DNA of 64,000 nt from Leucobacter sp. G161. GTDB lineage: Bacteria; Actinomycetota; Actinomycetes; Actinomycetales; Microbacteriaceae. Location of the stretch: the NCBI RefSeq assembly GCF_001482305.1, contig NZ_LOHP01000060.1, forward strand, positions 62,001 through 126,000. Reading direction: 5' to 3'. The notes under the pieces were generated by a model. That model saw only the letters and a list, made by a program, of their open reading frames with translations, was not told the DNA's origin and searched no databases. Below, piece by piece: positions 6,088 through 59,094 of this stretch (position 1 is its first letter; the number at the start of each line of letters is the position of its first letter). Made by a program: the position numbers and the translations under genes.

Positions 6088-6714
6088 TCAGTGTCCGCGT
6101 GCAATCCAGTCAGCGAGGTGGGGCGCCTCTGCTCCGATGGTTGTTGCTCCCCCGTGCCCGGTGTACACCACCGTGTCACTTGGCAGCGTCAGCAGCGACG
6201 CGCGAATCGACTCAATAATCGTCTCGAAGCTGCTGAAGGAGCGTCCTGTCGCACCCGGGCCGCCTTGAAACAGGGTATCTCCCGAAAACACCGCACCAAG
6301 CGCAGGCGCGACAAAGCAGCTGGATCCCGGCGAGTGCCCCGGAGTGTGCTTCGCGGTGAGATCGACACCAGCAACGGTGAACACATCGCCGTCAGCGATG
6401 TCAGCGTCGGGGGCCTCCGAGTACACCGTGTCCCAGAGCATCCGGTCTGCGGGGTGCAGATGGATCGGTGCGCCCAATAGTTCCGCGGTCTCCACGGCAG
6501 CGCGAATGTGGTCGTCGTGGCCGTGCGTGAGCAGCACCGCGAGGGTCTTGCGATCCCCCACCGCCGCCTTGATCGCCTCGGGATCGTGCGCGGGATCGAT
6601 CACGATCACCTCGGAGTCGTCCCCGACGATCCACACGTTATTGTCGACATCCCAGGTTCCGCCGTCGAGCGAGAATGTGCCGCTCGTCACCAGGTTCTCA
6701 ACGCGCGCGTTCAC
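6088..6714 (-). CDS. MBL-fold metallo-hydrolase linked to mycothiol dehydrogenase
   Basis: Metallo-beta-lactamase-fold hydrolase of 208 residues. The metal-binding motif THGHDDH (His64, His66, Asp68, His69) is intact, and later ligands are visible in [16 protein letters not shown] and the C-terminal GHGGATT. The start ATG overlaps the stop of the upstream dehydrogenase by four bases, so the two are translationally coupled. In other actinobacteria an MBL protein next to mscR is thought to hydrolyse S-formyl-mycothiol, the product of that enzyme, in the way S-formylglutathione hydrolase follows FrmA. That activity is inferred from the linkage; the fold also suits glyoxalase II-like thioesterases. 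A paralogue lies at 21059-21712. Confidence 0.88.
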
Positions 6715-7796
6715 AACACCACCACCGATCTCAGTACGTTGCCCGTCGCCATCTTGGCGAAGGCTGCTTCAACTTCGTCGAGCTTGATGCGCTCGGTCAC
6801 AAATCCTTCGAGATCGAGTCGTCCGAGCTTCGCCTGATCGATGAGCATCTGGAAGTCGCGGCTCGGCAGGCAGTCGCCGTACCACGACGACTTCAGCGAT
6901 CCACCGCGGCCAAACACGTCGAGCAACGGCAACTCGAGCATCATCTCGGGTGTCGGCACGCCGACGAGCACCACGCGGCCAGCGAGATCGCGCGCGTAGA
7001 ACGCCTGCGTGTAGGTCTCGGGCCGACCGACAGCGTCAACGACAACGTCCGCACCGAACCCGCCGGTGAGGGCCTGGATCGCTTCGACCGCGTCGGTGTG
7101 CTTCGAGTTCACCGTGTGCGTCGCGCCGAAGTGCTTCGCCTGCTCGAGCTTTGCGTCGTCGATGTCGACGGCGATGATCGTCGTCGCTCCCGCGAGCTGT
7201 GCGCCAGCGATCGCCGCGGTGCCGACACCGCCGCAGCCGATGACCGCGACGGACTCGCCGCGCTGCACGTCACCCGTGTTGATAGACGCGCCGATCCCTG
7301 CCATGATGCCGCATCCGAGGAGGCCGACTGCCGCCGCGTCCGACTCCTCATCGATCTTCGTGCACTGGCCTGCGGCGACGAGGGTCTTCTCAGCGAACGA
7401 TCCGATGCCGAGCGCAGCCGAGAGCTCCGTGCCGTCTTCGAGGGTCATCTTCTGGGTAGCGTTGTGCGTCGCGAAACAGTACTGCGCCTGCCCCTTCGCG
7501 CACGCGCGACACTCGCCGCACACGGCTCGCCAGTTGAGGATCACCCGGTCACCAACAGCGACCTCGGTGACGCCCTCGCCGACAACTGCCACGCGAGCGG
7601 TCGACTCGTGACCGAGGAGGAACGGGAAGTCGTCGTTTATTCCGCCCTGTTGGTAGTGATAGTCGGTATGGCACACGCCACAGGTGAGCACGTCGACGAC
7701 GACCTCACCGGGCCCGGGTTCGGGAACAATAATCGTTTCTACGGTCGCGGGTGCGTGCTTTTCGCGCACAACCACTCCCTGCACTCGATACGCCAC
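6711..7796 (-). CDS. mscR: S-(hydroxymethyl)mycothiol dehydrogenase
   Basis: Zinc-dependent medium-chain dehydrogenase of 361 residues that oxidises the formaldehyde-mycothiol adduct (and may reduce S-nitrosomycothiol), part of cytosolic formaldehyde detoxification. Visible: catalytic zinc motif [13 protein letters not shown], structural zinc cluster [15 protein letters not shown] and the NAD-binding GCGGVG turn. Length and motifs match the actinobacterial mycothiol-dependent enzyme rather than glutathione FrmA. It is coupled to the downstream MBL hydrolase. Its presence implies a mycothiol-producing actinobacterium. Confidence 0.9.
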
Positions 7797-7910
7797 GAGT
7801 CCACCTTTCTGCTGGAGACACCGAGGGCGGATCGCACCGCCATCGGCCTGTGGCCAGGCTATCGGGTTTACGCAGCGCGAGCCGTGAGCATTCGGCCTGG
7901 CGCGGCGTCT

Positions 7911-7988
7911 CTAGGAGTCGATGTCGTCTTCGAATTCGAGATCCTCGCCAGCGAAGATCGATTCAAGCATCGTTGCGAGATAGTTCAT
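7911..7988 (-). CDS. Possible 25-residue acidic peptide
   Basis: A short frame encodes an acidic peptide beginning MNYLATMLES and ending EDDIDS. It lies in the 277-bp gap between glnE and mscR. There is no clear Shine-Dalgarno sequence; the frame stays open upstream to a TTG near 8036. No family is recognised. It could be chance, or a leader peptide for mscR. Confidence 0.25.
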   Translation of the reverse strand: MNYLATMLESIFAGEDLEFEDDIDS

Positions 7989-8073
7989 GCTGTCAGGGTA
8001 CGCCGAGCGCCCGGCGCTGGCTAGAGCAGGCTCCAAATGGACGACAGCCGTTCAGCTGGCGGTCACCTCTCCC

Positions 8074-11000
8074 CTAGGCTTGCACCTCTGGGAAGTGTTC
8101 GTCTTCGCGATACCCAAAGAACTCTCGTTCAAAGACAACCCTGGCCCGGCGGCTGACTGTGTGCCAGCGCTCGACAAGCTCAGTGGTGCGCCCCCGCGGG
8201 TGCCCGAGCACGCCGGCAATCCCGGCGAGGTCCCGCCAGTCCCGCGGAAGCGTGTCAGACACTCGCCCGTTCCAGAGCCGCATCGCTGACCGCAGTGTGC
8301 TCGCGAGGCGCCAGGCTTCCTCCAAGACGTCGGCATCCTCGGAAGAGATCAAGCCAATTCGTGCGGCCGCACCGAGGGCGTCGAGCGTCGACACTGTCTG
8401 CAGCTCCGGATGTCTCGCTCCGTGTGCGAGTTGCAGGAGCTGCACGAGCCACTCAACATCAGTGATGCCCCCAGGGCCAAGCTTCAGGTGCATCGCGGGG
8501 TCCTGCCCCTGCGGCAGACGTTCCCCCTCGACACGCGCCTTGATGCGACGTACTTCTCGGAGCTGATCCTCACCAAACACCGCCGGGTACCTGATCGGGT
8601 CGGCCATGGCAAAGAACTCGTCACTCAGGCTGACGTCACCCGCCGCGTGTCGTGCACGCAGCAACGCCTGCGCCTCCCAGGTCACCGACCAACGTTCGTA
8701 ATAGCTCCGGTAGGATTCGATGCTCCGCACCAGCGGGCCATTTTTCCCCTCGGGCCGCAGGTCAAAGTCGAGGTCGACGGGGAATCGAGGATCAGAGACG
8801 AGCGACCGCAGCGCCGTAATCATCCTCCCGGCTGGAGAGACAGGCCCAATACCGGTCGCCCCGCCGCGCGCGACCGCAACAAGGTCGATATCTGAGGCAA
8901 AGCCGAGCTCTCCGCCGCCAAACCGTCCCATGCCGATGAGAGCGATCTCCGGCGGTTCGACATCGCCGCCATAGTGCGCACGAATCGCCAACAACAATGC
9001 GTCCAGAAGCGCCGTGTGTGCGGTGTTCAGCCCACGAGCAACGTCTTCCTCGTCGAGCACTCCGACGACGCGCCCCATCGCGAGCCGTAAGATTTCGCGA
9101 CGATGCACCCCACGGAGGCGTTCTGCGGCAGCGCTCAGGGAAGATCTCCGCGAGCCGAGTGACCGCATTTCGCTGAGCAGGGCCTCGGGCGCGGGCGGCT
9201 CCAGCAGGGAGTCGCGTTCGAGCCAGGCAACGCCCTCCGGGTGGCTCTCGAGCAGCGACGCGGCAAACTTGGAATTGGCGAGCAGCGTCGTGAGGCGCTC
9301 AGCAGCAAGCGAACCGTCGCGCAGCAGGCGCAGATACCACGAGGAGTTCCGGTTTGCTTCGCTGACTTTCCGGAACGCAAGCAACCCAAAGTCAGGGTCG
9401 GTGCCCTCGGCGAGCCATTGCAGCAGCACGGGCGTGAGATTGCGAAGGATCTTCGCGCTCCGTGAGGGGCCGCTGGTGAGCGCGGCGAGGTGGCGTGACG
9501 CCCCATCCGGATCCATAAAGCCAATGCTTGATAGTCGCGCTCGAGCCTGGGCAGTGCCGAGCACGAACTCCTCGTCGGGAAGCGCAGCGACAGCGCTGAG
9601 CAGCGGAGCGTAGAAGATCTTCAGGTGCAGCTCTCGCACCTCCCTGCGAACCCGATCCCAGAGAGCGCGCAGTTCTGCAGCGTTTCGCGCAAGTCCCGAT
9701 GCCCGAGCAAGCACCCGCAAACTCTCATCATCACGCGGCAAGAGTGCCGTTCGCCTGAGCTCACGCAGCTGCAGGCGATGCTCGAGCACCCTGAGCGTCC
9801 GGTAATGCTCGCTGAGACGCTCCCCGTCTTTCCGGGCGACGTAGCCATCTTCGACAAGTGCGCGAAGGGCCGGGAGCGTGCCCCGCAGCTGCAGGTGCTC
9901 ATCATGTTGACCATGGACGAGCTGCAGCAGCTGCACGCTGAACTCGATGTCGCGCAACCCTCCGGGCCCGAGCTTGATCTGGTAAGGAAGCTCATCGGGA
10001 GAGATGTGCTCGGTGACGCGCTCACGCATGCGTTGTACTGAGCCGACAAAGTCCTCGCGGTTGGAGGACGCCCACACGAGCGGACGAGTCAGCGCCACGA
10101 ATTCCTCGCCGAGCTCCAGGTCGCCGGCACACGCGCGTGCCTTAATCAGTGCCTGGAACTCCCATGCCTTCGCCCAGCGTTCGTAGTAGTTCATCATTGA
10201 CCCAAGCGTGCGAACGAGCGGTCCCTGCCGCCCTTCGGGCCGGAGATTAGCATCAACTTGCCACAGCGGCAGTTCGAGCGAGGGATCATGTATGGCGCGC
10301 ATCACCTCGCGCGCGAGCGCGGAAGCCGCCCGCTCATCACCCTCCGCGATGAACATCACGTCGACATCGGACACCACATTGAGTTCTTCCGCACCGCACT
10401 TGCCCATTGCAATGATTGAGAAACGCAGCTCCTGGCGCGTCGCCGCATCGATCTGCGGTGTCGAACTCGGCTCCTGGAGGGTCGCTCGGCCCACCGCGAT
10501 AGCAGTCTCGAGTGCCGCATCGGCGATGCAGGAGAGCGCGGCCGCGACGGCTTCGAACGCTGGCCGCGCGTCGGGCACATCCTCGTGCGAGCCAGGGCTG
10601 AGCAGGTCATAGAGCATGATGCCGGTGAGCAGCTCGCGGTATTTCACGCGCAGAGCATTCCAGCCCGTTTCGCCAACGAGCGTGATCCCCTGCCGCGTGA
10701 CGGCAGCGAGCATCTCCTCACGTGCTTCTTCACCGCTCGGAAGCCGGCCGTCCCGACCGGTGAGCCCGGCGATGAGTTCCGGGTGACGCAGCAGGAAATT
10801 GCCGAGGGCTGGCGAGGCTCCGACAACGAGGCACAGGCGCCGCCAAGCGAACGCGTCCAACCGGACCAAGCGATCAGCGCCGGTTTCAGCGAGCCGGATG
10901 AGGAGCGCCAACGTCGCATCCGGGTCTGCAGCGGACGCGAGGCCTTCAAGAAGCGCCCCGCTGTCCGTGTCCTCGAGCAACGCGGACAGCTCCGAGATGC

Positions 11001-49450: not shown

Positions 49451-49511
49451 ATGACCTCAGCGAGGTCATGACGATTTTACTGCCGATCACTCCTGACCTC
49501 GCTGAGGTCAT
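49451..49511. repeat. Pair of palindromes, mutually inverted
   Basis: ATGACCTC-AGC-GAGGTCAT (49451-49469) is followed by its reverse complement, TGACCTC-GCT-GAGGTCATG (49493-49511). Each unit is itself a hairpin and together they can form a cruciform. Lies between convergent genes, so a bidirectional terminator is likely; the sequence also looks like a two-site operator. Confidence 0.7.
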
Positions 49512-49567: not shown

Positions 49568-50407
49568 TTAGCCGATCGGTGGGCGCGCGCCGAGGTACGG
49601 GCCTTGGTTGCCCACCTCACGCGTGTTGACTCTCACGCCACGGTCGGTCGCGTCGAAGAGCTCCCTGGCCGCGAACCGGCCACCACCGACGGCGCCGTGC
49701 ACCCACGTGAAGCTGCTGCTGTCGATGGGCTCCTCGCCCCCGGCGATGAGCATGAGCTGCAACATGAGCAGCTCAGACAGCGTCGCATGTGGGCCGTGCG
49801 CATGACTGAGACCGACAAGTGCAGGCTTCTGGCCAGCTGGAATGAGCCGCAGCGTCCACTCCTGTCCGCCCGAGCGCACACTCGCGACGCCGCGCGGCAC
49901 CGCGTCGAGCTGGCCGAATTCTGCGACGACCTCGGGCGCAAGCACGAGGGGTGCGGCAAGCGAGAGCGGGCTTGCCGGTTGACGGGCGACCGTGCGGAAC
50001 AGGATCGTCCACCGCGCTGCACCGAGACCGTACGGCGCAGGGACGGGAACCAGGCTGGGGTCGGCCATCAGCGCACGCGCGAGTGTCGCGTGATCGACGC
50101 CCTGTTCCCAGAACGCCTCGGGTTCTGGGACCGTGAGTCCCGCCCAGCCGGCAACCGTGCTGGCGAGCGCGAACGCCCGCTCGAGACGGTCCGCTTCCTG
50201 CCCCTCGACGCCGGCGAAGGCAGCCCGGCCGAAATCGCCCTCCCGCGCGGCTCGTGCCGCGTCCTCAAGCAGCTGCTCAGCCTGACTCGAGGGCGGAACA
50301 CCGCCCGCTGCGTGCTGCGAATCAGCGAGTGCGCCGTCGAGCTCCTCCGCCAAGTCGGCGAAGAGCAGCCGCGCGAGCTGTGGGTGTTCCCCGGGTACTG
50401 ATGCCAT
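49568..50407 (-). CDS. Unknown protein of the MoxR/VWA module
   Basis: 279-residue protein with a strong GGAGGAAC ribosome-binding site. No family recognised. The first about 90 residues are helical and rich in Ala/Glu (LARLLFADLAEELDGALADS); the rest is mixed, with AARWTILFRTVA and a Gly-rich end (WVHGAVGGGRFAARELFD). No signal peptide or membrane segment. It follows the VWA gene by 45 bases, so it is probably the third member of that module. Confidence 0.7.
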   Translation of the reverse strand: MASVPGEHPQLARLLFADLAEELDGALADSQHAAGGVPPSSQAEQLLEDAARAAREGDFGRAAFAGVEGQEADRLERAFALASTVAGWAGLTVPEPEAFWEQGVDHATLARALMADPSLVPVPAPYGLGAARWTILFRTVARQPASPLSLAAPLVLAPEVVAEFGQLDAVPRGVASVRSGGQEWTLRLIPAGQKPALVGLSHAHGPHATLSELLMLQLMLIAGGEEPIDSSSFTWVHGAVGGGRFAARELFDATDRGVRVNTREVGNQGPYLGARPPIG

Positions 50408-50452
50408 GGTGGTTCCTCCGAGACTGAGCTTAGCGGGCCGCGTCGAACGCCG

Positions 50453-52360
50453 TCACTCGGTGATGCCGGCGTTCGTCACCAACTGTTCGAGCACGCCGGG
50501 AAGCTCCGCAGCGGTATCGAGCCGCATGCCGTCAGGGGCGAAACGTTTCGCGATGTCGTCGGTCCGAATGCCGATCCCGATCACCGTCACGCCCGAGTGA
50601 CGCAGCCGCGCGAGCTCGATGGCAGCGGCGTCGGCGTCGTTCGAGCCGCCGTCGCTCACGAGAATGGCGACGCGCCGCCGCGCGATTCCGCCCGCGCCAC
50701 CCGTGCCCCCGTTAGCGAGCCCGAACTCCCGCGCAGCGGCATTGAGCGCCGCGGCATCGTTGGTCGATCCCTGCGGGGAATGGATGGCGGCGTCGAGGGT
50801 GCGCCGAGCAAGATCGTCGAGCGCTCCGGCCAGCGGCTTCACCACGAGCGGCGCGGAGTCAAACACGATCAGCGCAGTCCGCAGGCTCAACTCAAGGTCG
50901 ATGCCCAGGGCACGCTCCTCGGCGGCAATGTCTCGCTCGACGCCGGCAAGCGCTTCCAACATGATGAGCGCCGCGGTAGCCGCGGCCTCCGCTGGCGGCC
51001 CCTGCATGGACGCCGAGCGGTCAATCAGGAGGACATAGTCGGTGCTCCCCTCCCGCCGGCTCTTACGCGGCCGACGCTGCCGTGCCAGGAACGCGCGGGG
51101 GCGTTCAACCCCGGCTGCCACGTCCGCGACGACACGCACGAGCGAGTCACGGTCAAGCAGATCCCCCTCGGCCTGCGGCAGCCGCGAGAAAGCACGTTCC
51201 TCCCGGACACGCTCCGAGACGATCTGCCGCCACACCTCACGCACCTGGTCGATACTCCTTGCGTGTTCGCGAGCACGCTCCCGGTAGTTGAGCAGCGCGG
51301 TCGCTCCCGAGCCACCCGTACCAAGCGCCCCGGCCTCGCGCGGGCGATCAGCATTGTCGTCGGGCTCATCACTCGCGATCATCTCGGGAAGCTCAAGCCC
51401 TTCCGCCCAGACGCCGGCGGCAGGAAGCGGCGTGGACAGCACCGTGCCCACGAAGCCCGCCTGCTCCGCGGCGAACAGATCGGCGCCCTCAGAGCCCTCA
51501 CGCTTATCACCGGCGCGAGCCGCCTCCGTCTCACCGTCGGTGGTGGCGTCCCCGCCCTCACCCCCGTCAGCTGCATCCTCGTCCGCGCTACCTCCCGCGG
51601 AGTCAAAGCCGGCCTGCTCATCGCCCGCATCATCCTCCGGTTGGCTGCTCCCGCGCTCGCCGCCAAGATCGGCCTGCAGGCCCCGCTCGCTCGCATCGAG
51701 CGCGAACAGCCGCTCGTACGGGGGCGCAAGCAGTCCGAAGGCTCGCTCGAAACGCTGCATGGGTGACCGCCGCGGATCGGCGGACACCGCAAGCAGCAGT
51801 GCCCCGGCGGTCTCACCGGACACGCCATCAAGCGCGGCGAGCTCGGCGCGCACCTCGGGCGCGAGCGATGCAACGTGCTCGGGCACTGCGGGCACCCCAC
51901 TCGCCCAGCGCAGCGCCACGGTGTTGAGCACCGCTACAATCCACTGCAGGTGTCGCGGTAGCTCCCCGGGCGCGCTCGCCGTCTGTGCGACCACGGCACG
52001 CGCGATCGGAAGCCGCAAGCTCGGCATGACCGCAAGCAGCTCCCCCGCGGCCAGCACACGATCCACCGCGGCGAGCAGCGGCTCTAGCCGCGGAGTGTGC
52101 GCACTCAACGCGAGCCTGCGTCGGCGTCGCGCAGGCGCAACACGCACTTCGCGCACGGACTCCCACAGCAGCAGCAGCACGCGAGCGACCATCTCATCGT
52201 CAGAGAGCCGCTCGTCAGACACCACCTGCAGCCCAACGTGCGCCACACCATCGCGGACCCACCACTCGGCGCCCTCGTGCAGCTCAACGGGCACACCCAC
52301 CACAGCGGCCGCAGCCGCAATAGCCCCGCGAACCCCAGACTCGCCATGCGCGTGCACCAT
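50453..52360 (-). CDS. VWA-domain protein paired with a MoxR ATPase
   Basis: 635-residue cytosolic protein. The start at 52360 is placed by TAGTGT seven bases upstream; the longer frame overlaps the divergent neighbour. Residues 1-230 are a helical Ala/Arg/Leu-rich region with its own repeat-like pattern. About 235-305 is a strongly acidic, Gly/Asp/Glu-rich linker. The C-terminal VWA domain (about 441-635) has an intact MIDAS: DRSAS (Asp447), the Thr in GSTNDA and the SDGG aspartate. This is the usual client- or partner-binding half of a MoxR-VWA chaperone pair. Confidence 0.85.
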   Translation of the reverse strand: MVHAHGESGVRGAIAAAAAVVGVPVELHEGAEWWVRDGVAHVGLQVVSDERLSDDEMVARVLLLLWESVREVRVAPARRRRRLALSAHTPRLEPLLAAVDRVLAAGELLAVMPSLRLPIARAVVAQTASAPGELPRHLQWIVAVLNTVALRWASGVPAVPEHVASLAPEVRAELAALDGVSGETAGALLLAVSADPRRSPMQRFERAFGLLAPPYERLFALDASERGLQADLGGERGSSQPEDDAGDEQAGFDSAGGSADEDAADGGEGGDATTDGETEAARAGDKREGSEGADLFAAEQAGFVGTVLSTPLPAAGVWAEGLELPEMIASDEPDDNADRPREAGALGTGGSGATALLNYRERAREHARSIDQVREVWRQIVSERVREERAFSRLPQAEGDLLDRDSLVRVVADVAAGVERPRAFLARQRRPRKSRREGSTDYVLLIDRSASMQGPPAEAAATAALIMLEALAGVERDIAAEERALGIDLELSLRTALIVFDSAPLVVKPLAGALDDLARRTLDAAIHSPQGSTNDAAALNAAAREFGLANGGTGGAGGIARRRVAILVSDGGSNDADAAAIELARLRHSGVTVIGIGIRTDDIAKRFAPDGMRLDTAAELPGVLEQLVTNAGITE

Positions 52361-52367
52361 ACCCACC

Positions 52368-52373
52368 ACACTA
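52368..52373 (-). promoter_or_regulatory. -10 element TAGTGT, leaderless VWA gene
   Basis: TAGTGT on the minus strand ends seven bases before the VWA ATG at 52360. It is back to back with the MoxR -10 element nine bases away. Confidence 0.5.
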
Positions 52374-52381
52374 GCGAGTGA

Positions 52382-52387
52382 TAGCGT
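52382..52387 (+). promoter_or_regulatory. -10 element TAGCGT, leaderless MoxR gene
   Basis: TAGCGT ends six bases before the MoxR ATG at 52394. The whole divergent gap is only 33 bases, so the two promoters must share or compete for polymerase. Confidence 0.5.
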
Positions 52388-52393
52388 GACCGT

Positions 52394-53818
52394 ATGCTCC
52401 CGTTCGACGCACACCCGGTTCTCGCGGAGGCCGTAGAAGTACACCGGGAGCTCACGCGCACCCGCCGTGTTGCCCGTTCCTCCGACTCCCCACGCGCGGC
52501 GCTCGCCGCCGACGCCCAGCGCGCACTCGCTGCCCGACTTGCAGCGCTGCATGCTGACCCAGAGACTGGGGAGATCCTCGACCGTGCGCTCACTGAGCGC
52601 GCGGCGCTGCTCCGAGCCGCGGTCGAAGCTTGGCGGATCACGCTCGCGCAGCGTGAACTCCGTGAGCAGGCAGCCGCAGTGGCGACGGATGCGGCCCGGG
52701 AGCATCGCTCACTCATTCAGGCAGAAGAGCTCCTCATCGGTAACCTGCGAGCGCAGGCAGATCGGTTCGGTGAGCGCCGCAGCGCGCTCCTCGCCGAACG
52801 TGTCGACACCGAGGCAACCCGCGACGACCTCCTTGCGGCGCTCGGCGCGCTACGCGTCAGGGAGGCGCGCACACAGTTGCGGCGAGGGCTCCTCCTCACC
52901 GGCCAGATGCGCGACATCATCGCGGAGGCGCTGCCCGCGCTGACGCGTGGCGAGCCGCTGCTGCTGCTCGGGGAGACCGGCGGAGCGAAGACCGCGCTTG
53001 CTGAGTACCTGTCGCGGGTGATGCTCGGACGTGAGCCGGAGCTCGTCTCGGGCTACGGTGACATCACGAGCTCACAGCTCATCGGCAGTCACGAACTGCG
53101 TTCCGATCAGGGCGCCACGGTGAGCGTGTTCGTCGCTGGCCCACTGCTGCGCGCCATGACCGAGGGGCGCCCTGTCATCCTCGACGAGGTGAACGCGATG
53201 CCGGCAGAGTTCCTGAAGCGGCTGAACCGGATCCTGCAGCTGCGCCCCGGCGATCGCTTCGCGGTGCAGGAGAACAGTGGCATCGCGATCACCATCGAGC
53301 CCGGGTTCGCGATTCTGGCCACGGCGAACGAGCAAACACCCCATCGCTATCGCGGGATCGACCGCATGAGCGCGGAGCTCGTGAACCGCTTTGGCGCGAA
53401 CAGTTACCGCGTCCACTACCCCGACGCCGGCCTCTCGTACGCCGATGTGCCGCGCGAGAACGCGCTGCTCGCGGCGGCCTCGATTGCGGACGCTGCGGGC
53501 GCGGTGCCGCTCTCCACCGACGAACTTGAACGTGTCGCACGTGCGGCGTTCATCAGCCAGCAGGTGTTCGCCGGCTCGCACGGCGAGGGCTTCAATACGT
53601 TCGTCTCCACCGAGCGCGAGATCGACGGCAGGCCGGGGCTTGAGGAGTCCGTGCTCGCCCCGCGCACCCTCGTTGCGATCGTGCAGAAGGTGGCGGGCAG
53701 CGGCGGTCAGGTTTCGCTCGATCACGCCCTCCGGCGATTCGTCGACGGCGTCATGCACGCGGAGGATCGCCAGGTACTCGCGCTGATTCTACGGTCCCAG
53801 GGATTTCTCGCCGGGTAA
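52394..53818 (+). CDS. MoxR-type AAA+ ATPase with long coiled-coil N-terminus
   Basis: 474-residue ATPase. Residues about 1-165 are an Arg/Glu/Ala-rich coiled coil, unusual for MoxR proteins, which normally begin near the P-loop. Then Walker A GETGGAKT (193-200), Walker B VILDEVN (261-267), sensor 1 ILATANE and sensor-region arginines, with an AAA lid domain to the C-terminus. Read divergently from the VWA protein. MoxR-VWA pairs act as maturation or remodelling chaperones; the client is unknown here. Confidence 0.88.
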   Translation: MLPFDAHPVLAEAVEVHRELTRTRRVARSSDSPRAALAADAQRALAARLAALHADPETGEILDRALTERAALLRAAVEAWRITLAQRELREQAAAVATDAAREHRSLIQAEELLIGNLRAQADRFGERRSALLAERVDTEATRDDLLAALGALRVREARTQLRRGLLLTGQMRDIIAEALPALTRGEPLLLLGETGGAKTALAEYLSRVMLGREPELVSGYGDITSSQLIGSHELRSDQGATVSVFVAGPLLRAMTEGRPVILDEVNAMPAEFLKRLNRILQLRPGDRFAVQENSGIAITIEPGFAILATANEQTPHRYRGIDRMSAELVNRFGANSYRVHYPDAGLSYADVPRENALLAAASIADAAGAVPLSTDELERVARAAFISQQVFAGSHGEGFNTFVSTEREIDGRPGLEESVLAPRTLVAIVQKVAGSGGQVSLDHALRRFVDGVMHAEDRQVLALILRSQGFLAG

Positions 53819-53880: not shown

Positions 53881-53941
53881 CCGTGGCGCGCATTCGAACG
53901 TAGCCTTGCGGAGACCCACTCCTCCCAAGGCAAGGATGCTC

Positions 53942-55273
53942 ATGGCCAGCAGCACGCACGGCGACGACTTCGCCCTCACGAGAGTGCCCCAGGCCTCTCG
54001 CAAACACTGGTTCGGAATCGCAGTGCAGCGATTCGGCCAGGTCTCCGCACTCTCGCAGTTCTTGCTCGGAGCGACCCTCGGGTACGCGATGACGTTCGGG
54101 GACGCGGTGCTCGCGTTTCTGCTCGGTTCGATCATCCTCGAAGTCGTCATCGTCTTCGTCGGTCTCATCGGCCAGCGCGAAGGCCTGAACACGTCGCTCC
54201 TCGCCCGCTGGACAGGTTTCGGTGAGGTCGGGGCAGCGCTCGTTGGCCTGGCAATCGGCATTAGCCTCATCGGCTGGTTCGGAATCCAGTCCGCAATCTC
54301 CGCGCAGTCGCTCGACAGCCTCATGCCCGGCGTCTTCCCGGTGTGGGTCTGGAGTCTGCTCTTTGGGCTTGCGGTCACCGCGATCGTCGCCTTCGGGTTC
54401 AAGGGCATGCAGTTGCTCGCGAACGTCACGGTTCCGCTGTTCCTTATCCTCGTTGGCTGGTCTGTCATCAGCGAGCTCTCCAAGCACGACATCGGCGAGC
54501 TCATGACCGGCCCGCCGCCCGGTCCAACCATGAGTGTCGGGGCAGGCACGGGCATCGTCGCCGGTGGCCTCATCGTCGGCGCGATCATTTCAGCAGATAT
54601 GACGCGGTTCAACCGCAGCGGCGCCGACGTCGTCAAGCAGACCGTCGTTGGCGTGACACTCGGTGAGTTCGTCATCGGCCTCTCCGGCGTGCTGCTTGCG
54701 CACGCGACCGCGAGCGGCGACATCGTCGCCATCATCACCACCTCTGTCGGCTTCGTCGGCCTCCTCATCGTCATCACCGGCACACTGAAGATCAACGACT
54801 GGAACCTTTACTCCTCGACGCTCGGGCTCGTGAATTTCATCTCGACGGCATTCGGCAAGAACCTGAACCGGGTCACCACGACAATCGTCCTCGGCGTTGT
54901 CGGTTCGGTACTCGCTGCCGCAGGCATCCTCGGTCAGCTCACCGGCTTCCTGACCCTGCTCTCGGTCGCGTTCCCGCCCATCGCAGGCATCATGGTCGCA
55001 GAGTACTTCATCGTGAAGCGTTGGCGGCCCGAGCTCGAGTCATCGCGCGCCGAGGGTCGCCTTCCCGTCACCGCGCCACGAGTGGTCCCCGCGACGATCA
55101 TCATTTGGATCGCTTCCTCGGTCGCTGGCTACTTCATCACCTGGGGCATCCCCGCAGTGTTCTCACTGCTCATTTCCATGGTGCTCTACGTCATCGCAGG
55201 CAAGCTGGGCTGGGTACGCGCGATCGGCTCGGTCCGCACCAGGCAGCCAGAGGACGCCGGCGAGTCCGCGTAG
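53942..55273 (+). CDS. NCS1-family permease (CodB-like)
   Basis: 443-residue transporter with 12 predicted helices, of the cytosine/purine/hydantoin NCS1 family (LGATLGYAMTFGDAVLAFLL, IISADMTRFNRSG). Start 53942 with AAGG six bases upstream. It opens the catabolic island and is followed 52 bases later by the HyuA-like gene, so the imported compound is probably the substrate of those enzymes: a pyrimidine, hydantoin or related cyclic amide. Confidence 0.87.
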   Translation: MASSTHGDDFALTRVPQASRKHWFGIAVQRFGQVSALSQFLLGATLGYAMTFGDAVLAFLLGSIILEVVIVFVGLIGQREGLNTSLLARWTGFGEVGAALVGLAIGISLIGWFGIQSAISAQSLDSLMPGVFPVWVWSLLFGLAVTAIVAFGFKGMQLLANVTVPLFLILVGWSVISELSKHDIGELMTGPPPGPTMSVGAGTGIVAGGLIVGAIISADMTRFNRSGADVVKQTVVGVTLGEFVIGLSGVLLAHATASGDIVAIITTSVGFVGLLIVITGTLKINDWNLYSSTLGLVNFISTAFGKNLNRVTTTIVLGVVGSVLAAAGILGQLTGFLTLLSVAFPPIAGIMVAEYFIVKRWRPELESSRAEGRLPVTAPRVVPATIIIWIASSVAGYFITWGIPAVFSLLISMVLYVIAGKLGWVRAIGSVRTRQPEDAGESA

Positions 55274-55325
55274 CCCCCGTAGCTTCACCCACACGTTCCG
55301 CATCACCCCTCAGAAAGCACACACC

Positions 55326-56879
55326 ATGCATATTGGCATCGACGTCGGCGGCACCAACACCGACGCAGCGCTCATGGACGGCAACCGCACCCTCGTCGGC
55401 ATCAAGCACTCGACGACGCCGGACGTCACCGACGGCATCATCCAGGCCATCGCCGGGCTCCGCGCACAGCACCCATTCAACGGAGCAGACATCACCGCGG
55501 TGATGATCGGCACGGCGCACTTCATCAACGCACTCGTCCAGGCCAAGCGCCTCGCGCCTACCGCCGCGCTGCGACTGGGGCTGCCTGCCACCCAAGCCCT
55601 GCCGCCGCTCGTCGACTGGCCGGAGACGTTGAAAAGCGCGATCGAGGCGCGCAGCTATCTCGCGCACGGCGGCTATGAGTTCGACGGTCGACCGATCAGC
55701 CCGCTCGACCCGGAAGAGCTGCGGGCACACGCGGCCGACATGCAGCGGCACGGCATTCGGTCGGTCGCGATCTCATCGGTCTTCAGCCCGGTGAATCACG
55801 ACCTTGAGGTCGAGGCCGCGCGGCTCGTTGGTGAGGTGCCCGGCGACGGGGTTGCGATCTCGCTGTCCCACGAAATTGGGCGGATCGGTTTGCTCGAGCG
55901 CGAAAACGCTACCGTCATCAACGCCGCGTTGCGGGAACTCGCGTCGGAGATTGTCGACGGGCTAACGGCCGCCGTGCGCGCCGAGGGCATCGACGCGCCG
56001 ATCTTCCTGAGCCAAAACGACGGCACGCTCATGGACGAGGACTACGTGCGCCGCTACCCGGTGGCAACGTTCGCGTCTGGACCAACAAACTCGATGCGGG
56101 GCGCGGCCCTCACCAGCGGGCTCGACACCTGTGCGGTGATCGACGTTGGCGGCACGACCGCCGACGTCGGCCTGCTCATCAACGGTTTCCCCCGTGAGAC
56201 GGCGAACGAGGTGAAGGTCGCGGGCGTCCGTACGAACTTCCGCATGCCCGACGTACTGTCGCTCGGCATCGGCGGCGGCAGCATCGTGAACCTCGAGACT
56301 GCAGAGGTCGGCCCCGAGTCGGTCGGTTACAACCTCGGCACTGACGCACTTGTCTTCGGCGGCACGACGCTCACGGCGACCGACGTTGCCGTTGCAGCCG
56401 GCCGGGCAAACATCGGCGATCCCGCACGGGTTGCCCATCTCGATCCCGCATTCGTTCAGCGAGTGCTCGACCGGATCGCGGAGCGGGTAGCCGAGGCAGT
56501 GGACCGGATGCGGACCTCGCCCGACCCGATCCCCGTCGTCGCCGTCGGCGGCGGATCCGTGCTCCTCCCCGACGTACTACCGATTTTTGGTGCGGTCTCG
56601 AAGCCCGAGAACTACGCCGTCGCCAACGCCATCGGCGCTTCGATCGCGCAGGTTGGCGGAGAGATCGACAAGGTCTATTCAATTGCGCCGGGTCAGCGCG
56701 AGGAGACCCTTGCAGCGGTGCGCGGTGAGGCGATCGAGAAGGCGATCGCCGCCGGAGCGAAGCCCGATTCGGTGTCCATTATCGATTTCGATGAGGTGCC
56801 GATTCCGTACCTGCCGGGGAACGCCACACGCATTCGCGTGAAGGCTGTCGGCGACCTGAGCATGGGGGCGTCACTGTGA
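55326..56879 (+). CDS. Hydantoinase/oxoprolinase-family protein (HyuA-like)
   Basis: 517-residue ASKHA-fold ATPase-type hydrolase. N-terminal phosphate loop GIDVGGTNTDAALMDG, the middle DVGGTTADVGLLINGFP and IGGGSI, and VGGGSVLLPD near the C-terminus are typical of the HyuA half of ATP-dependent hydantoinases and oxoprolinases. There is no HyuB partner; its ATGA overlaps the first DUF917 gene instead, suggesting those proteins replace or complement HyuB. Substrate unknown. Confidence 0.85.
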   Translation: MHIGIDVGGTNTDAALMDGNRTLVGIKHSTTPDVTDGIIQAIAGLRAQHPFNGADITAVMIGTAHFINALVQAKRLAPTAALRLGLPATQALPPLVDWPETLKSAIEARSYLAHGGYEFDGRPISPLDPEELRAHAADMQRHGIRSVAISSVFSPVNHDLEVEAARLVGEVPGDGVAISLSHEIGRIGLLERENATVINAALRELASEIVDGLTAAVRAEGIDAPIFLSQNDGTLMDEDYVRRYPVATFASGPTNSMRGAALTSGLDTCAVIDVGGTTADVGLLINGFPRETANEVKVAGVRTNFRMPDVLSLGIGGGSIVNLETAEVGPESVGYNLGTDALVFGGTTLTATDVAVAAGRANIGDPARVAHLDPAFVQRVLDRIAERVAEAVDRMRTSPDPIPVVAVGGGSVLLPDVLPIFGAVSKPENYAVANAIGASIAQVGGEIDKVYSIAPGQREETLAAVRGEAIEKAIAAGAKPDSVSIIDFDEVPIPYLPGNATRIRVKAVGDLSMGASL

Positions 56880-57982
56880 GCTGGACAATTACCGTCGACG
56901 ACATTGACGACCTCGCGCGAGGCTCAGCCGTACTCGGCACGGGTGGCGGTGGTGACCCCTACATTGGTGGCCTGCTCGCCAAGGAGGCGCTCAGGCGCCA
57001 CGGTGACGTGACTGTCGTTTCACTCGACGAACTCCCCGACGACGCGGTCGTCGCGTGCGTATCGATGCTCGGCGCCCCGACCGTGATGGTCGAGAAGCTA
57101 CCGAGTCTCGACGAGGTCATGCGCCCCGTCCGCGAACTCAGCGAACACTACGGCCGGCCCATCACGCACATCATGTGCATCGAGGTGGGCGGGGTGAACT
57201 CCACCATCCCGATCGCAGCGGCCGCGGCTACCGGGCTTCCTGTGCTCGATGCTGATGGCATGGGCCGCGCGTTCCCCGAGCTACAGATGGTGCTGCCGAC
57301 GCTCTACGGCGTCACGTCCTCGCCGCTGGCGTACTCTGACGAAAAGGGCAACGTTGGGGTGCTCCGCACCATTGACAACGCATGGGGAGAGCGGATCATT
57401 CGAGTTGCCGCGGTTGAAATGGGCTGCTCAATCATGCTCTCTGGCTTCCACATGTCAGGTGCAACCGCGCGCAAGGCACTCGTCCGTGACTCGCTGTCGC
57501 TCTGCATGAACGTTGGTCGGGCAATCGTTGATGCCCGCGCAGACAAGGTCGATGCGGTTGAGCGCGCGACTGACATTCTGGGTGGCCGTGTCCTGTTCGG
57601 CGGCAAAGTGACCGATGTGGAACGCGCCACCACCGCAGGCTTTGCCCGCGGGCGTGCGACGATCGAAGAGGGCGGCAGCACCCTCGTGCTGTCGTTCCAA
57701 AACGAACACCTCATCGCCGAGCTTGACGGCCGCGTGCTTGCGACGACACCCGATCTCATCATGGTGCTCGACCACGAGAACGGGGAGCCTATCACGACCG
57801 AGGGGCTCAGGTACGGACAGCGGGTGCGGGTGATCGCGGCGCCCGCCGATGAGCGGTGGCACTCCCCCGCCGCGATCGAGATGGTCGGGCCACGGTACTT
57901 CGGCTACGACCTCGATCCGCACCGCTTCGATGGTACCGTGCGCGCGGGAGCCGCGATCGCTGACGCAGAGTCAGTATCGTGA
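56876..57982 (+). CDS. DUF917 protein, copy 1
   Basis: 368-residue DUF917 (S-methyl-thiohydantoin desulfurase-like) protein. N-terminal DLARGSAVLGTGGGGDPYIG and the central IPIAAAAATGLPVLDADGMG, RAFPEL are family hallmarks; a beta-rich C-terminal domain follows (EPITTEGLRYGQRVRV). GTG start overlaps hyuA by four bases and its own stop overlaps copy 2. Very similar to copy 2 in layout. Confidence 0.85.
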   Translation: MSWTITVDDIDDLARGSAVLGTGGGGDPYIGGLLAKEALRRHGDVTVVSLDELPDDAVVACVSMLGAPTVMVEKLPSLDEVMRPVRELSEHYGRPITHIMCIEVGGVNSTIPIAAAAATGLPVLDADGMGRAFPELQMVLPTLYGVTSSPLAYSDEKGNVGVLRTIDNAWGERIIRVAAVEMGCSIMLSGFHMSGATARKALVRDSLSLCMNVGRAIVDARADKVDAVERATDILGGRVLFGGKVTDVERATTAGFARGRATIEEGGSTLVLSFQNEHLIAELDGRVLATTPDLIMVLDHENGEPITTEGLRYGQRVRVIAAPADERWHSPAAIEMVGPRYFGYDLDPHRFDGTVRAGAAIADAESVS

Positions 57983-59094
57983 GCTGGACGCTCACCGCGG
58001 AGGATCTCCCGGATCTCGCCCGAGGCGCGACGCTCCTCGGCACGGGCGGCGGCGGCGACCCGTACATCGGTCAGATGCTCGTGCAGCAGGTGCTCGGCGA
58101 CCGCGGCATCACGATCCTCGACCCCGACGAGCTCGCTGATGACCTGTTCGTGATCCCGACCGCCCAGATGGGCGCGCCGACGGTCATGGTTGAAAAGATT
58201 CCGGCCGGCACGGAGCCGCTCGCGGCCCTCCGCACGCTCGAGGCACACCTCGGGCGGCAGGCAGATGCGACCATGCCAATCGAGTGCGGGGGCATCAACT
58301 CGATGATCCCGCTCATTGTCGCTGCGGAGTCCGGCCTCCCCGTGGTCGATGCCGACGGCATGGGGCGCGCGTTCCCCGAGCTCTCGATGGAAACGTTCGC
58401 CGTCTACGGTGTGCAGGGCTCACCGCTCGCCCTCGCTGGCGAGCGTGGCGAGCACGTCATCATCGACACCGGCTCCGACAACCGGCAGATGGAGTCGTTT
58501 GCGCGCGCGATCACGATTCGGCTGGGCGGTGTCGGCCACATCGCCGAGTACGCGATGAGCGGCGCCGATGTACGCCGCACCGCGGTGCCACGCACGCTGT
58601 CGATGGCGCTCAACCTCGGCCGGGCGATCCGCGTAGCGCGCGAGCAGCATCGCTCACCGTTCGCGGCGATCGCTGACACCCTGGCGCCGACGCTGTACTC
58701 CCACGTTCGCGAGCTCCACGTTGGCAAGGTGGTCGATGTCGAGCGGCGCACGACCGAGGGCTTCGCACGCGGCCGCGCGGTCATCGCCAGCGAGGAGGGC
58801 GAGGGCGAGCCGGTCGAGATCGCGTTTCAGAACGAAAACCTCACCGCCTATCGGGGAGCGGAACTGCTCGCAATCGTGCCAGACCTCATCTGCATCGTCG
58901 ACCATGAAACCGCCGAACCCATCACGACCGAGGGGCTCCGCTACGGTCAACGCGTGCGCGTTCTCGGTATATCGACGCCAGCGCTCATGCGCACGCCGGA
59001 GGCGCTCGACACGTTCGGCCCGAGCGCTTTCGGACTCAGCGAAGCCTTTGTCCCCGTTGAGACGCTCGGAGGGGGCGCTGTCGAGGGAGCGTGA
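57979..59094 (+). CDS. DUF917 protein, copy 2
   Basis: 371-residue paralogue of copy 1 with the same DLARGATLLGTGGGGDPYIG, LPVVDADGMGRAFPELS and EPITTEGLRYGQRVRV blocks. GTG start overlapping copy 1. The pair probably forms a hetero-oligomer or acts on successive intermediates; inference from tight coupling. Confidence 0.85.
   Translation: MSWTLTAEDLPDLARGATLLGTGGGGDPYIGQMLVQQVLGDRGITILDPDELADDLFVIPTAQMGAPTVMVEKIPAGTEPLAALRTLEAHLGRQADATMPIECGGINSMIPLIVAAESGLPVVDADGMGRAFPELSMETFAVYGVQGSPLALAGERGEHVIIDTGSDNRQMESFARAITIRLGGVGHIAEYAMSGADVRRTAVPRTLSMALNLGRAIRVAREQHRSPFAAIADTLAPTLYSHVRELHVGKVVDVERRTTEGFARGRAVIASEEGEGEPVEIAFQNENLTAYRGAELLAIVPDLICIVDHETAEPITTEGLRYGQRVRVLGISTPALMRTPEALDTFGPSAFGLSEAFVPVETLGGGAVEGA

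What the first reader, a model, noticed from the sequence alone, without database searches (positions are those of the whole stretch)
49568..53818. Divergent leaderless MoxR/VWA/unknown module
An AAA+ ATPase with a long coiled coil, a VWA protein with a strong acidic linker and an unrecognised 279-residue protein form one block. Promoters are back to back in 33 bases and both first genes appear leaderless. The set resembles ternary MoxR-VWA systems and may be an uncharacterised chaperone or conflict module.
Basis: partly seen in the sequence, partly recalled or inferred. Interest (0 to 1): 0.55.

Follow-up and report, generated by a model that had tools for sequence, protein, structure and literature searches.

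The report
Leucobacter AAA+/VWA module with orphan partner
Bacteria of the genus Leucobacter carry a molecular motor gene, its probable adaptor and a third protein of no known family side by side, which together look like a protein-remodelling chaperone whose target is still unknown.

Summary
The block is real. A 474-aa AAA_5 ATPase (52394-53818 +) diverges from a 635-aa VWA protein (50453-52360 -), followed by a 279-aa protein, TP (49568-50407 -). The window is Leucobacter. All three genes occur in 47 of 54 genus genomes and four genomes lack all three. They lie together in 31 of 34 fetched loci; the other three are cut by a contig end. Rearranged paralogues keep the trio. Leaderless starts are supported: TANNNT lies 4-10 nt before the start in 29 of 29 AAA and 24 of 29 VWA genes, against 2.3-2.6% in shuffles. 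The VWA model matches the MIDAS domains of midasin and NorD and shares NorD's layout: N-terminal domain, disordered acidic linker, VWA. TP matches no family; its C-terminal half weakly resembles the C-type-lectin/FGE fold, without sequence support. Best reading: a vertically inherited NorQD-type remodelling chaperone with TP as dedicated client or adaptor. It fails the tests for VMAP ternary conflict systems. Complex and target are inferred.

The parts
49568..50407 (-). TP: 279-aa third protein without a family match; N-terminal helices plus an alpha/beta C-terminal domain (about 112-279) ending in a conserved FTW..G....AAR...D....R...R....QGP..G.R pattern
50414..50419 (-). Shine-Dalgarno-like GGAGGA before TP (a leadered gene behind the VWA gene)
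   Evidence: Read; SD-like motif before 19 of 29 type I TP genes
50453..52360 (-). VWA protein, 635 aa: N-terminal domain about 1-228, disordered acidic linker about 229-350 with a conserved EGADLFAAEQAGF-like patch (288-306), VWA with complete MIDAS (D447, S449, S451, T533, D570)
52368..52373 (-). -10 element TAGTGT of the leaderless VWA gene, 7 nt before its ATG
52382..52387 (+). -10 element TAGCGT of the leaderless AAA gene, 6 nt before its ATG; in most loci part of a longer conserved block (TGATAGCGTG or TGGTAGCGTG)
52394..53818 (+). AAA_5 ATPase, 474 aa; N-terminal A/R/L/E-rich extension about 1-160; Walker A 193-200, Walker B 260-265, sensor 1 309-312, candidate arginine finger R332, sensor 2 422-425
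49451..49511 (.). Two inverted copies of a 19-bp palindrome between the convergent thioesterase gene and TP; the second is terminator-like. Probable edge of the module

Best explanation
An ATP-driven protein-remodelling chaperone that works like NorQD. The AAA_5 protein forms a ring (inferred). The VWA protein docks on it through its VWA domain and carries a separate N-terminal domain on an acidic flexible linker (domains modelled, docking inferred). The MIDAS metal of the VWA domain, or the N-terminal domain, grips the partner TP, with an invariant acidic residue of TP (E212, D229 or D252) as a possible sixth MIDAS ligand (inferred). ATP-driven twisting of the VWA domain then remodels TP or what TP holds (inferred). 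TP is probably co-transcribed with the VWA gene (same strand, 45 bases apart). The AAA and VWA genes are transcribed from back-to-back promoters as leaderless mRNAs, which could tie the dose of motor and adaptor together. Shown here: the genes, intact catalytic and MIDAS motifs, linkage, shared presence and absence, conserved promoter elements, predicted fold of the VWA domain. Inferred: physical complex, client or adaptor role of TP, cellular target.
For: Walker A/B, sensor 1, N331-R332 and sensor 2 are invariant in 29 rows, apart from one A/G change in Walker A and changes at 260-261; MIDAS D447, S451, T533 and D570 in 29 of 29 and S449 in 28 of 29. The VWA model's best structural matches are Rea1/MDN1 MIDAS (Z 21.6, rmsd 2.9, 216 residues) and, below these, NorD VWA (Z 17.2, rmsd 6.2, 227 residues); Foldseek ranks NorD chains first (1.9e-8). 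The strongest single-domain solved homologue of the AAA profile is NorQ (1e-8); the midasin E-value (3e-35) sums several domain matches, each under 25 bits in the entry printed. The domain layout (about 1-228, 229-350, 350-635) copies NorD (1-224, disordered, 336-638; passages of PMC9976466). TP lies with the pair in 31 of 34 loci, the rest being cut; all three genes are in 47 of 54 genomes. Distances of the three proteins stay correlated after removing neighbour-gene distances (partial r 0.53-0.64, 0 of 2000 permutations each, 22 loci). With pyrB+efp alone removed, the trio gives 0.61-0.72 and four control pairs 0.17-0.50, three of which are themselves beyond chance, so the excess is modest.
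Against: No physical interaction was tested and no complex could be modelled. Known NorQD-type pairs act on broadly conserved enzymes, whereas TP is lineage-specific, so TP may be an adaptor or regulator and not the client. TP has no invariant His or Cys, so metal insertion into TP is unlikely. Close linkage also follows from simple vertical descent. The best sequence match of the VWA profile in the PDB is a mussel byssus VWA protein (9.8e-14), with CobT next (3.5e-5), and NorD is not among the two listed; the NorD and midasin likeness is structural and confined to the VWA half, as the N-terminal domains were not shown to be related.
Confidence: 0.5

Rival explanations
1. A NorQD-type AAA+/VWA chaperone whose client is an unlinked, widely conserved Leucobacter protein; TP is only an accessory factor that tunes the pair, for example an ATPase regulator or assembly factor.
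For: The characterised pairs met here (NorQD, RavA-ViaA, CbbQO) act on other enzymes (abstract starts, passages). TP is helical plus alpha/beta with many invariant residues but no obvious catalytic set.
Against: TP evolves at the same mean rate as the VWA protein (both 5.8 times the neighbours) and its distances track VWA distances, which fits a direct binding partner; this does not exclude an accessory role.
Confidence: 0.25
2. A conflict or defence module (phage sensing or abortive infection) analogous to the MoxR-vWA ternary systems, with the possibly C-type-lectin-like TP as a sensor or effector.
For: Ternary MoxR-vWA systems exist in actinobacteria, and in cyanobacteria and others they use FGS/C-type-lectin domains (PMC7159879, passages and section 9 part 1; PMC10907252, passages). 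TP's C-terminal half weakly resembles that fold. VWA and TP evolve fast relative to housekeeping neighbours.
Against: Each gene is present in 44 of 45 better-quality genus genomes. The module sits beside nusB-efp in 25 of 34 loci; of the other nine, four are cut short, two are type II copies and three (L036, L040, L044) lack these neighbours in the stretch fetched, so the site is not absolutely fixed. dN/dS is 0.05-0.29. PADLOC gives only a generic AAA match at 0.0024. The lectin-like part is the most conserved region of TP, not a hypervariable one.
Confidence: 0.12
3. A metal-chelation or cofactor-insertion complex like CobS/CobT, with TP the third subunit.
For: The VWA profile matches CobT in the PDB (3.5e-5) and CobT_C in 7 of 29 members (best 0.0025); the acidic linker resembles that recalled for CobT and BchD.
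Against: TP is far smaller than CobN (recalled) and has no invariant His or Cys; the neighbours named by family search are pyr, nusB, efp, thioesterase, permease, hydantoinase and S-Me-THD-like genes, no tetrapyrrole gene.
Confidence: 0.06

Closest known systems
NorQ/NorD (MoxR-like AAA+ and VWA chaperone of nitric oxide reductase)
   Same: AAA+ plus VWA pair in adjacent genes; complete MIDAS; N-terminal domain, disordered linker, C-terminal VWA of nearly the same length; best single-domain solved AAA homologue
   Different: Divergent leaderless genes, an N-terminal extension on the AAA protein and a third protein TP; none of the neighbours named by family search is a nor gene
Midasin (Rea1/MDN1)
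   Same: Related AAA_5 domains and the closest VWA/MIDAS fold (Z 21.6); acidic stretch before the MIDAS domain (recalled for midasin)
   Different: Midasin is one giant eukaryotic chain with six AAA domains acting on pre-60S ribosomes (recalled); here the parts are split, and TP has no profile match to a solved protein
AAA_5 / DUF5682 / VWA_CoxE systems (YehL-YehM-YehP-like; gene names recalled)
   Same: Closest AAA relatives found in the order outside the family; AAA_5 plus VWA plus a third protein
   Different: 28-38% identity over part of the AAA protein; the third protein is DUF5682. Their VWA is CoxE type (3e-59 in L079); the window VWA matches VWA_CoxE only at 0.17, though 17 of 29 orthologues match at E up to 1, best 3e-8
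VMAP-type MoxR-vWA ternary conflict systems
   Same: Three components including a MoxR-like ATPase and a vWA protein; fast-evolving vWA and third component
   Different: No VMAP-C, other gene order, no C-terminal effectors, no N-terminal tryptophan motifs; near-universal in one genus
RavA/ViaA and CbbQ/CbbO
   Same: MoxR AAA+ plus C-terminal VWA chaperone logic (PMC9976466 passages)
   Different: Other AAA+ subfamilies and no linked partner of the TP kind (recalled, not compared here)

Membership tests
NorQD-like MoxR AAA+/VWA chaperone pairs | Catalytically intact AAA+ domain (Walker A/B, sensors, arginine finger) | tested here: met
   Invariant in 29 rows apart from one A/G change in Walker A and changes at 260-261; the role of R332 is assigned by position
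NorQD-like MoxR AAA+/VWA chaperone pairs | Adjacent VWA gene with MIDAS motif DxSxS-T-D | tested here: met
   one of 29 rows has A in place of S449
NorQD-like MoxR AAA+/VWA chaperone pairs | VWA partner = N-terminal domain + disordered linker + C-terminal VWA | tested here: met
   Predicted model, pLDDT under 50 at 233-287 and 309-350; VWA fold
[quoted passage not shown]
   Candidate strands 387-395 and 425-431 in the model; no complex prediction available
NorQD-like MoxR AAA+/VWA chaperone pairs | ATP-dependent activation of a defined client enzyme | not testable with these tools
   Needs an experiment
Classic MoxR (Pfam AAA_3, PF07726) | Match to AAA_3 above cut-off | tested here: not met
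   The window protein matches AAA_5, not AAA_3; the AAA_3 search of the own genome finds other places only. A type II paralogue (L094) gives 22.8 bits against a cut-off of 27
VMAP ternary conflict systems | Third component with VMAP-C domain (PF20028) | tested here: not met
   Among 28 TP orthologues only three unrelated families appear at E up to 10, none of them VMAP (HMMER's filters drop most matches above 0.1). PF20028 has no match in the own genome, but its control genomes were silent too
VMAP ternary conflict systems | Gene order VMAP, MoxR, vWA | tested here: not met
   Divergent or rearranged in the loci examined; definition from PMC7159879 section 9
VMAP ternary conflict systems | vWA protein with C-terminal effector domains | tested here: not met
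   The proteins end with the VWA domain or a short tail in the alignment of 29; no effector family among those listed for the 29 members
[quoted passage not shown]
   No conserved tryptophan in the N-terminal extension of alignment A3 (read)
FGE/EgtB/C-type-lectin superfamily (for TP) | C-type-lectin fold | tested here: inconclusive
   The 12 best VIA rows, about eight distinct proteins, are to my knowledge of this superfamily (placement of InvE and CarF recalled), but Z is only 4.0-6.0, rmsd 2.6-4.4; Foldseek finds nothing under 0.001
FGE/EgtB/C-type-lectin superfamily (for TP) | Sequence-profile relationship (PF03781) | tested here: not met
   No PF03781 match among 28 members; profile comparison scores 14.4 against 60 decoys with median 12.8 and maximum 19.9
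Known defence systems (PADLOC) | Match to a system-specific model | tested here: not met
   Only a weak match at 0.0024 of the AAA protein to the AAA part of RtcR_PspF1; none for VWA or TP

The most novel reading that the evidence does not exclude
A split, bacterial midasin-like machine: the MIDAS site of the VWA protein holds a dedicated ligand protein (TP) with a heavily diverged C-type-lectin/FGE-like fold, the way midasin holds the UBL domains of ribosome-assembly factors, and pulls TP off or into a Leucobacter-specific assembly. It would be a new AAA+/VWA client class with a new ligand fold.
Probability: 0.12. Interest if true: 0.6.

Novelty: new variant of a known kind. Interest (0 to 1): 0.4.

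Why it matters
How VWA partners steer MoxR-type AAA+ motors to their targets is known for only a few pairs. Here the probable partner of the VWA protein is encoded next to it, is small, is predicted with good confidence (mean pLDDT 86.7) and comes with dozens of natural variants and a rearranged paralogue, so the rule by which a MIDAS site picks its ligand could be tested directly. The short double leaderless promoter, conserved across the genus, is also a compact case of possibly dose-coupled expression of a motor and its adaptor. Searches of the held paper library for Leucobacter with MoxR and for Microbacteriaceae with MoxR returned no paper.

Tried and rejected
VMAP/ternary conflict membership: tested and rejected. 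FGE homology of TP by sequence: no support in two attempts; the FGE set held one wrongly framed sequence (L107), removed. Viral fold library for TP: nothing under 0.001. Apparent PDB sequence matches of TP to designed armadillo repeats (2e-6 at best) vanish with the profile (0 matches at E up to 1) and are treated as chance. Metal-enzyme idea for TP (EgtB/SenA resemblance): not kept, because no His or Cys is invariant. Coiled coil of the AAA extension: crude test negative, left open. Possible TP-VWA fusions suggested by long open frames: no fusion seen in the named loci, where the TP and VWA frames are separate. Consensus sigma-70 scan: no promoter found in the region; that scan needs a -35 box.

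Full report
What is there. The coordinates in the finding are exact. Reading outward from a 33-base gap, an AAA+ gene runs right (52394-53818 +, 474 aa) and a VWA gene runs left (50453-52360 -, 635 aa), followed after 45 bases on the same strand by a 279-aa gene, here called TP (49568-50407 -). The AAA protein matches AAA_5 (8e-20), not the classic MoxR family AAA_3; the VWA protein matches VWA (2e-8); TP matches nothing at E up to 1 in Pfam, NCBIfam or PADLOC. Among 28 TP orthologues only three unrelated families appear at E up to 10, the best at 0.011 in one member.

Which organism. A scan of named genomes with the AAA protein returned 34 loci, 32 of them labelled Leucobacter and two MAGs labelled only Microbacteriaceae and Actinomycetota; the closest is L. 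komagatae at 83%. The window is therefore a Leucobacter or a very close relative.

Linkage. Of the 34 loci, 31 hold all three genes; the other three (L056, L060, L065) have the AAA gene at a contig end. Twenty-nine are divergent as in the window (type I) and two are rearranged (type II). In most type I loci the two divergent starts are 33 to 123 bases apart; L036, L045, L051 and L067 have 208-327, L044 has 2.7 kb, and L066 has split frames. The gene cluster pyrC-pyrB-pyrR-nusB-efp (names by NCBIfam) lies beside the module in 25 of 34 loci for nusB and efp and 22 of 34 for pyrB and pyrR. Of the nine loci without nusB-efp, four are cut short (L041, L056, L060, L065), two are type II copies (L063, L064) and three (L036, L040, L044) lack these neighbours in the stretch fetched. 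The right-hand neighbours in the window (permease, hydantoinase, S-Me-THD-like genes) are shared by only 2 of 34 loci, so they are not part of the module.

Genus-wide counts. Among 54 genomes of the genus, the AAA profile is found in 49, VWA in 49 and TP in 48. Comparing the lists, 47 have all three, four have none (G010, G027, G036, G815), and three are partial (G002, G007, G813), all in fragmented assemblies: in G007 and G813 the genes found start at a contig end, while for G002 a contig break is likely but not shown. Of 45 genomes at least 90% complete and at most 5% contaminated, 44 have each gene; the exception, at 94% completeness, is G036.

Beyond the genus. In 299 genomes of the family the TP profile hits 11: seven of the genus, two of one sibling genus (g123) and two marginal hits (E 0.002 and 0.004) that I treat as chance. 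The AAA profile hits nine: the same seven and two. The VWA profile in 296 genomes of the phylum hits only the window's own. These wide scans scored 4 to 8 candidates per genome, so absence is soft. In the order, seven other genomes of 198 have only an AAA-domain match (E 1e-13 to 7e-11, 28-38% identity). Two of these loci were examined by family search: L083 and L079 hold DUF5682 beside the AAA gene, and L079 also VWA_CoxE; these are YehL-YehM-YehP-like systems (gene names recalled).

A paralogue keeps the trio. In the type II copies the AAA and VWA genes are co-oriented and TP is on the opposite strand, converging on the VWA gene. All three are present in each of six copies that I count as distinct: Leucobacter G003, G015, G020, G814 and both g123 genomes, which also have type I. 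A DegT-type aminotransferase gene lies directly upstream in L063 and L064.

Leaderless starts. In the window, TAGCGT ends 6 nt before the AAA ATG and TAGTGT ends 7 nt before the VWA ATG. TANNNT lies 4-10 nt before the start in 29 of 29 type I AAA genes and 24 of 29 type I VWA genes (window plus 28 loci; L066 and the three cut loci were left out), against 3 of 29 TP genes and 2.3-2.6% of shuffled AAA and VWA upstream sequences. In three of the five VWA misses (L035, L036, L038) an ATG lies shortly after a TANNNT just upstream of the start my script chose; L043 and L067 are plain misses. SD-like motifs are present before 19 of 29 TP genes but 1 of 29 AAA and 4 of 29 VWA genes. The two type II copies tested lack the signal before AAA and VWA.

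Selection. dN/dS in seven close pairs is 0.05-0.29 for the three genes, above most neighbours but clearly purifying. VWA and TP evolve 5.8 times and AAA 3.4 times as fast as pyrB+pyrR+efp+nusB (22 loci); these are slow genes, so the ratio by itself is weak evidence of conflict. Partial distance correlations among the three are 0.53-0.64. With pyrB+efp alone removed they are 0.61-0.72, against 0.17-0.50 in four control pairs, three of which are beyond chance too. This is weak evidence of co-evolution.

Structure. TP folds confidently in prediction (mean pLDDT 86.7). Foldseek finds no relative under 0.001 in the PDB or in viral models. In the second look the twelve best rows, all for residues 111-279, are SenA, several EgtB entries, FGE, CarF, InvE and C-type-lectin domains, at Z 4.0-6.0. 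To my knowledge these are one superfamily, but the scores are under the level at which a match means much, and profile comparison with FGE sequences scores within decoys. I treat it as a lead. The VWA model (mean pLDDT 76.1, pTM 0.46) has ordered halves joined by disordered stretches; its VWA half matches Rea1/MDN1 MIDAS best by Z and NorD best by Foldseek. By sequence profile its best solved matches are a mussel byssus VWA protein (9.8e-14) and CobT (3.5e-5). The AAA profile's best single-domain solved homologue is NorQ (1e-8); the midasin score is a sum over repeats, none above 25 bits in the entry printed.

Mechanism. In NorQD, a finger of the VWA domain enters the AAA+ pore, the MIDAS is thought to bind an acidic residue of the target, and ATP-driven rotation is proposed to stretch the linker to the N-terminal domain (PMC13036017: abstract, section 7 and passages; PMC9976466: passages). 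The window pair has the same parts in the same order and nearly the same size. TP, just downstream of the VWA gene on the same strand, with acidic residues E212, D229 and D252 invariant in 28 of 28 rows, is the natural candidate for what the VWA protein holds. This is inference; no complex was modelled or measured.

Compared with known systems. It works like NorQD and shares NorD's layout; it is not classic AAA_3 MoxR and fails the tested defining features of the VMAP ternary systems as given in PMC7159879 section 9, part 1. The nearest AAA relatives examined elsewhere in the order lie beside DUF5682, not TP. I found no paper on it in the held library with the searches Leucobacter + MoxR and Microbacteriaceae + MoxR. 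Verdict: a real, conserved, lineage-restricted variant of the AAA+/VWA chaperone kind with a new third protein family.

Noticed in passing
window 49451-49469 and 49493-49511: A 19-bp palindrome ATGACCTCAGCGAGGTCAT and an inverted copy with one mismatch sit between the convergent thioesterase and TP genes; no match was seen in 100 shuffles. The second is terminator-like.
   Followed up: partly
window 53930-59094: A permease, a hydantoinase-like gene and two similar genes (the first S-Me-THD-like by Pfam) lie right of the module; only 2 of 34 related loci share them, so a variable cassette borders a conserved module.
   Followed up: partly
L044 5288-7311: In one MAG a histidine kinase gene and a LuxR-type response regulator gene lie between the AAA and VWA genes, which are 2.7 kb apart there.
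   Followed up: partly
L066 (L. coleopterorum) 6093-9418: AAA and VWA are each split over two frames in this complete genome, which the genome tool rates 89% complete; decay or sequencing error was not resolved.
   Followed up: no
L063 6646-7878, L064 6580-7806: A DegT/DnrJ/EryC1/StrS aminotransferase gene abuts the type II AAA gene, and a class V aminotransferase gene (serC-like, recalled) lies nearby in L063.
   Followed up: partly
window 50453-52360, protein residues 288-306: A short, strongly conserved, predicted helical patch (EGADLFAAEQAGF) inside the otherwise disordered acidic linker of most type I VWA proteins, changed in the two type II proteins aligned; it may be a docking motif.
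   Followed up: partly
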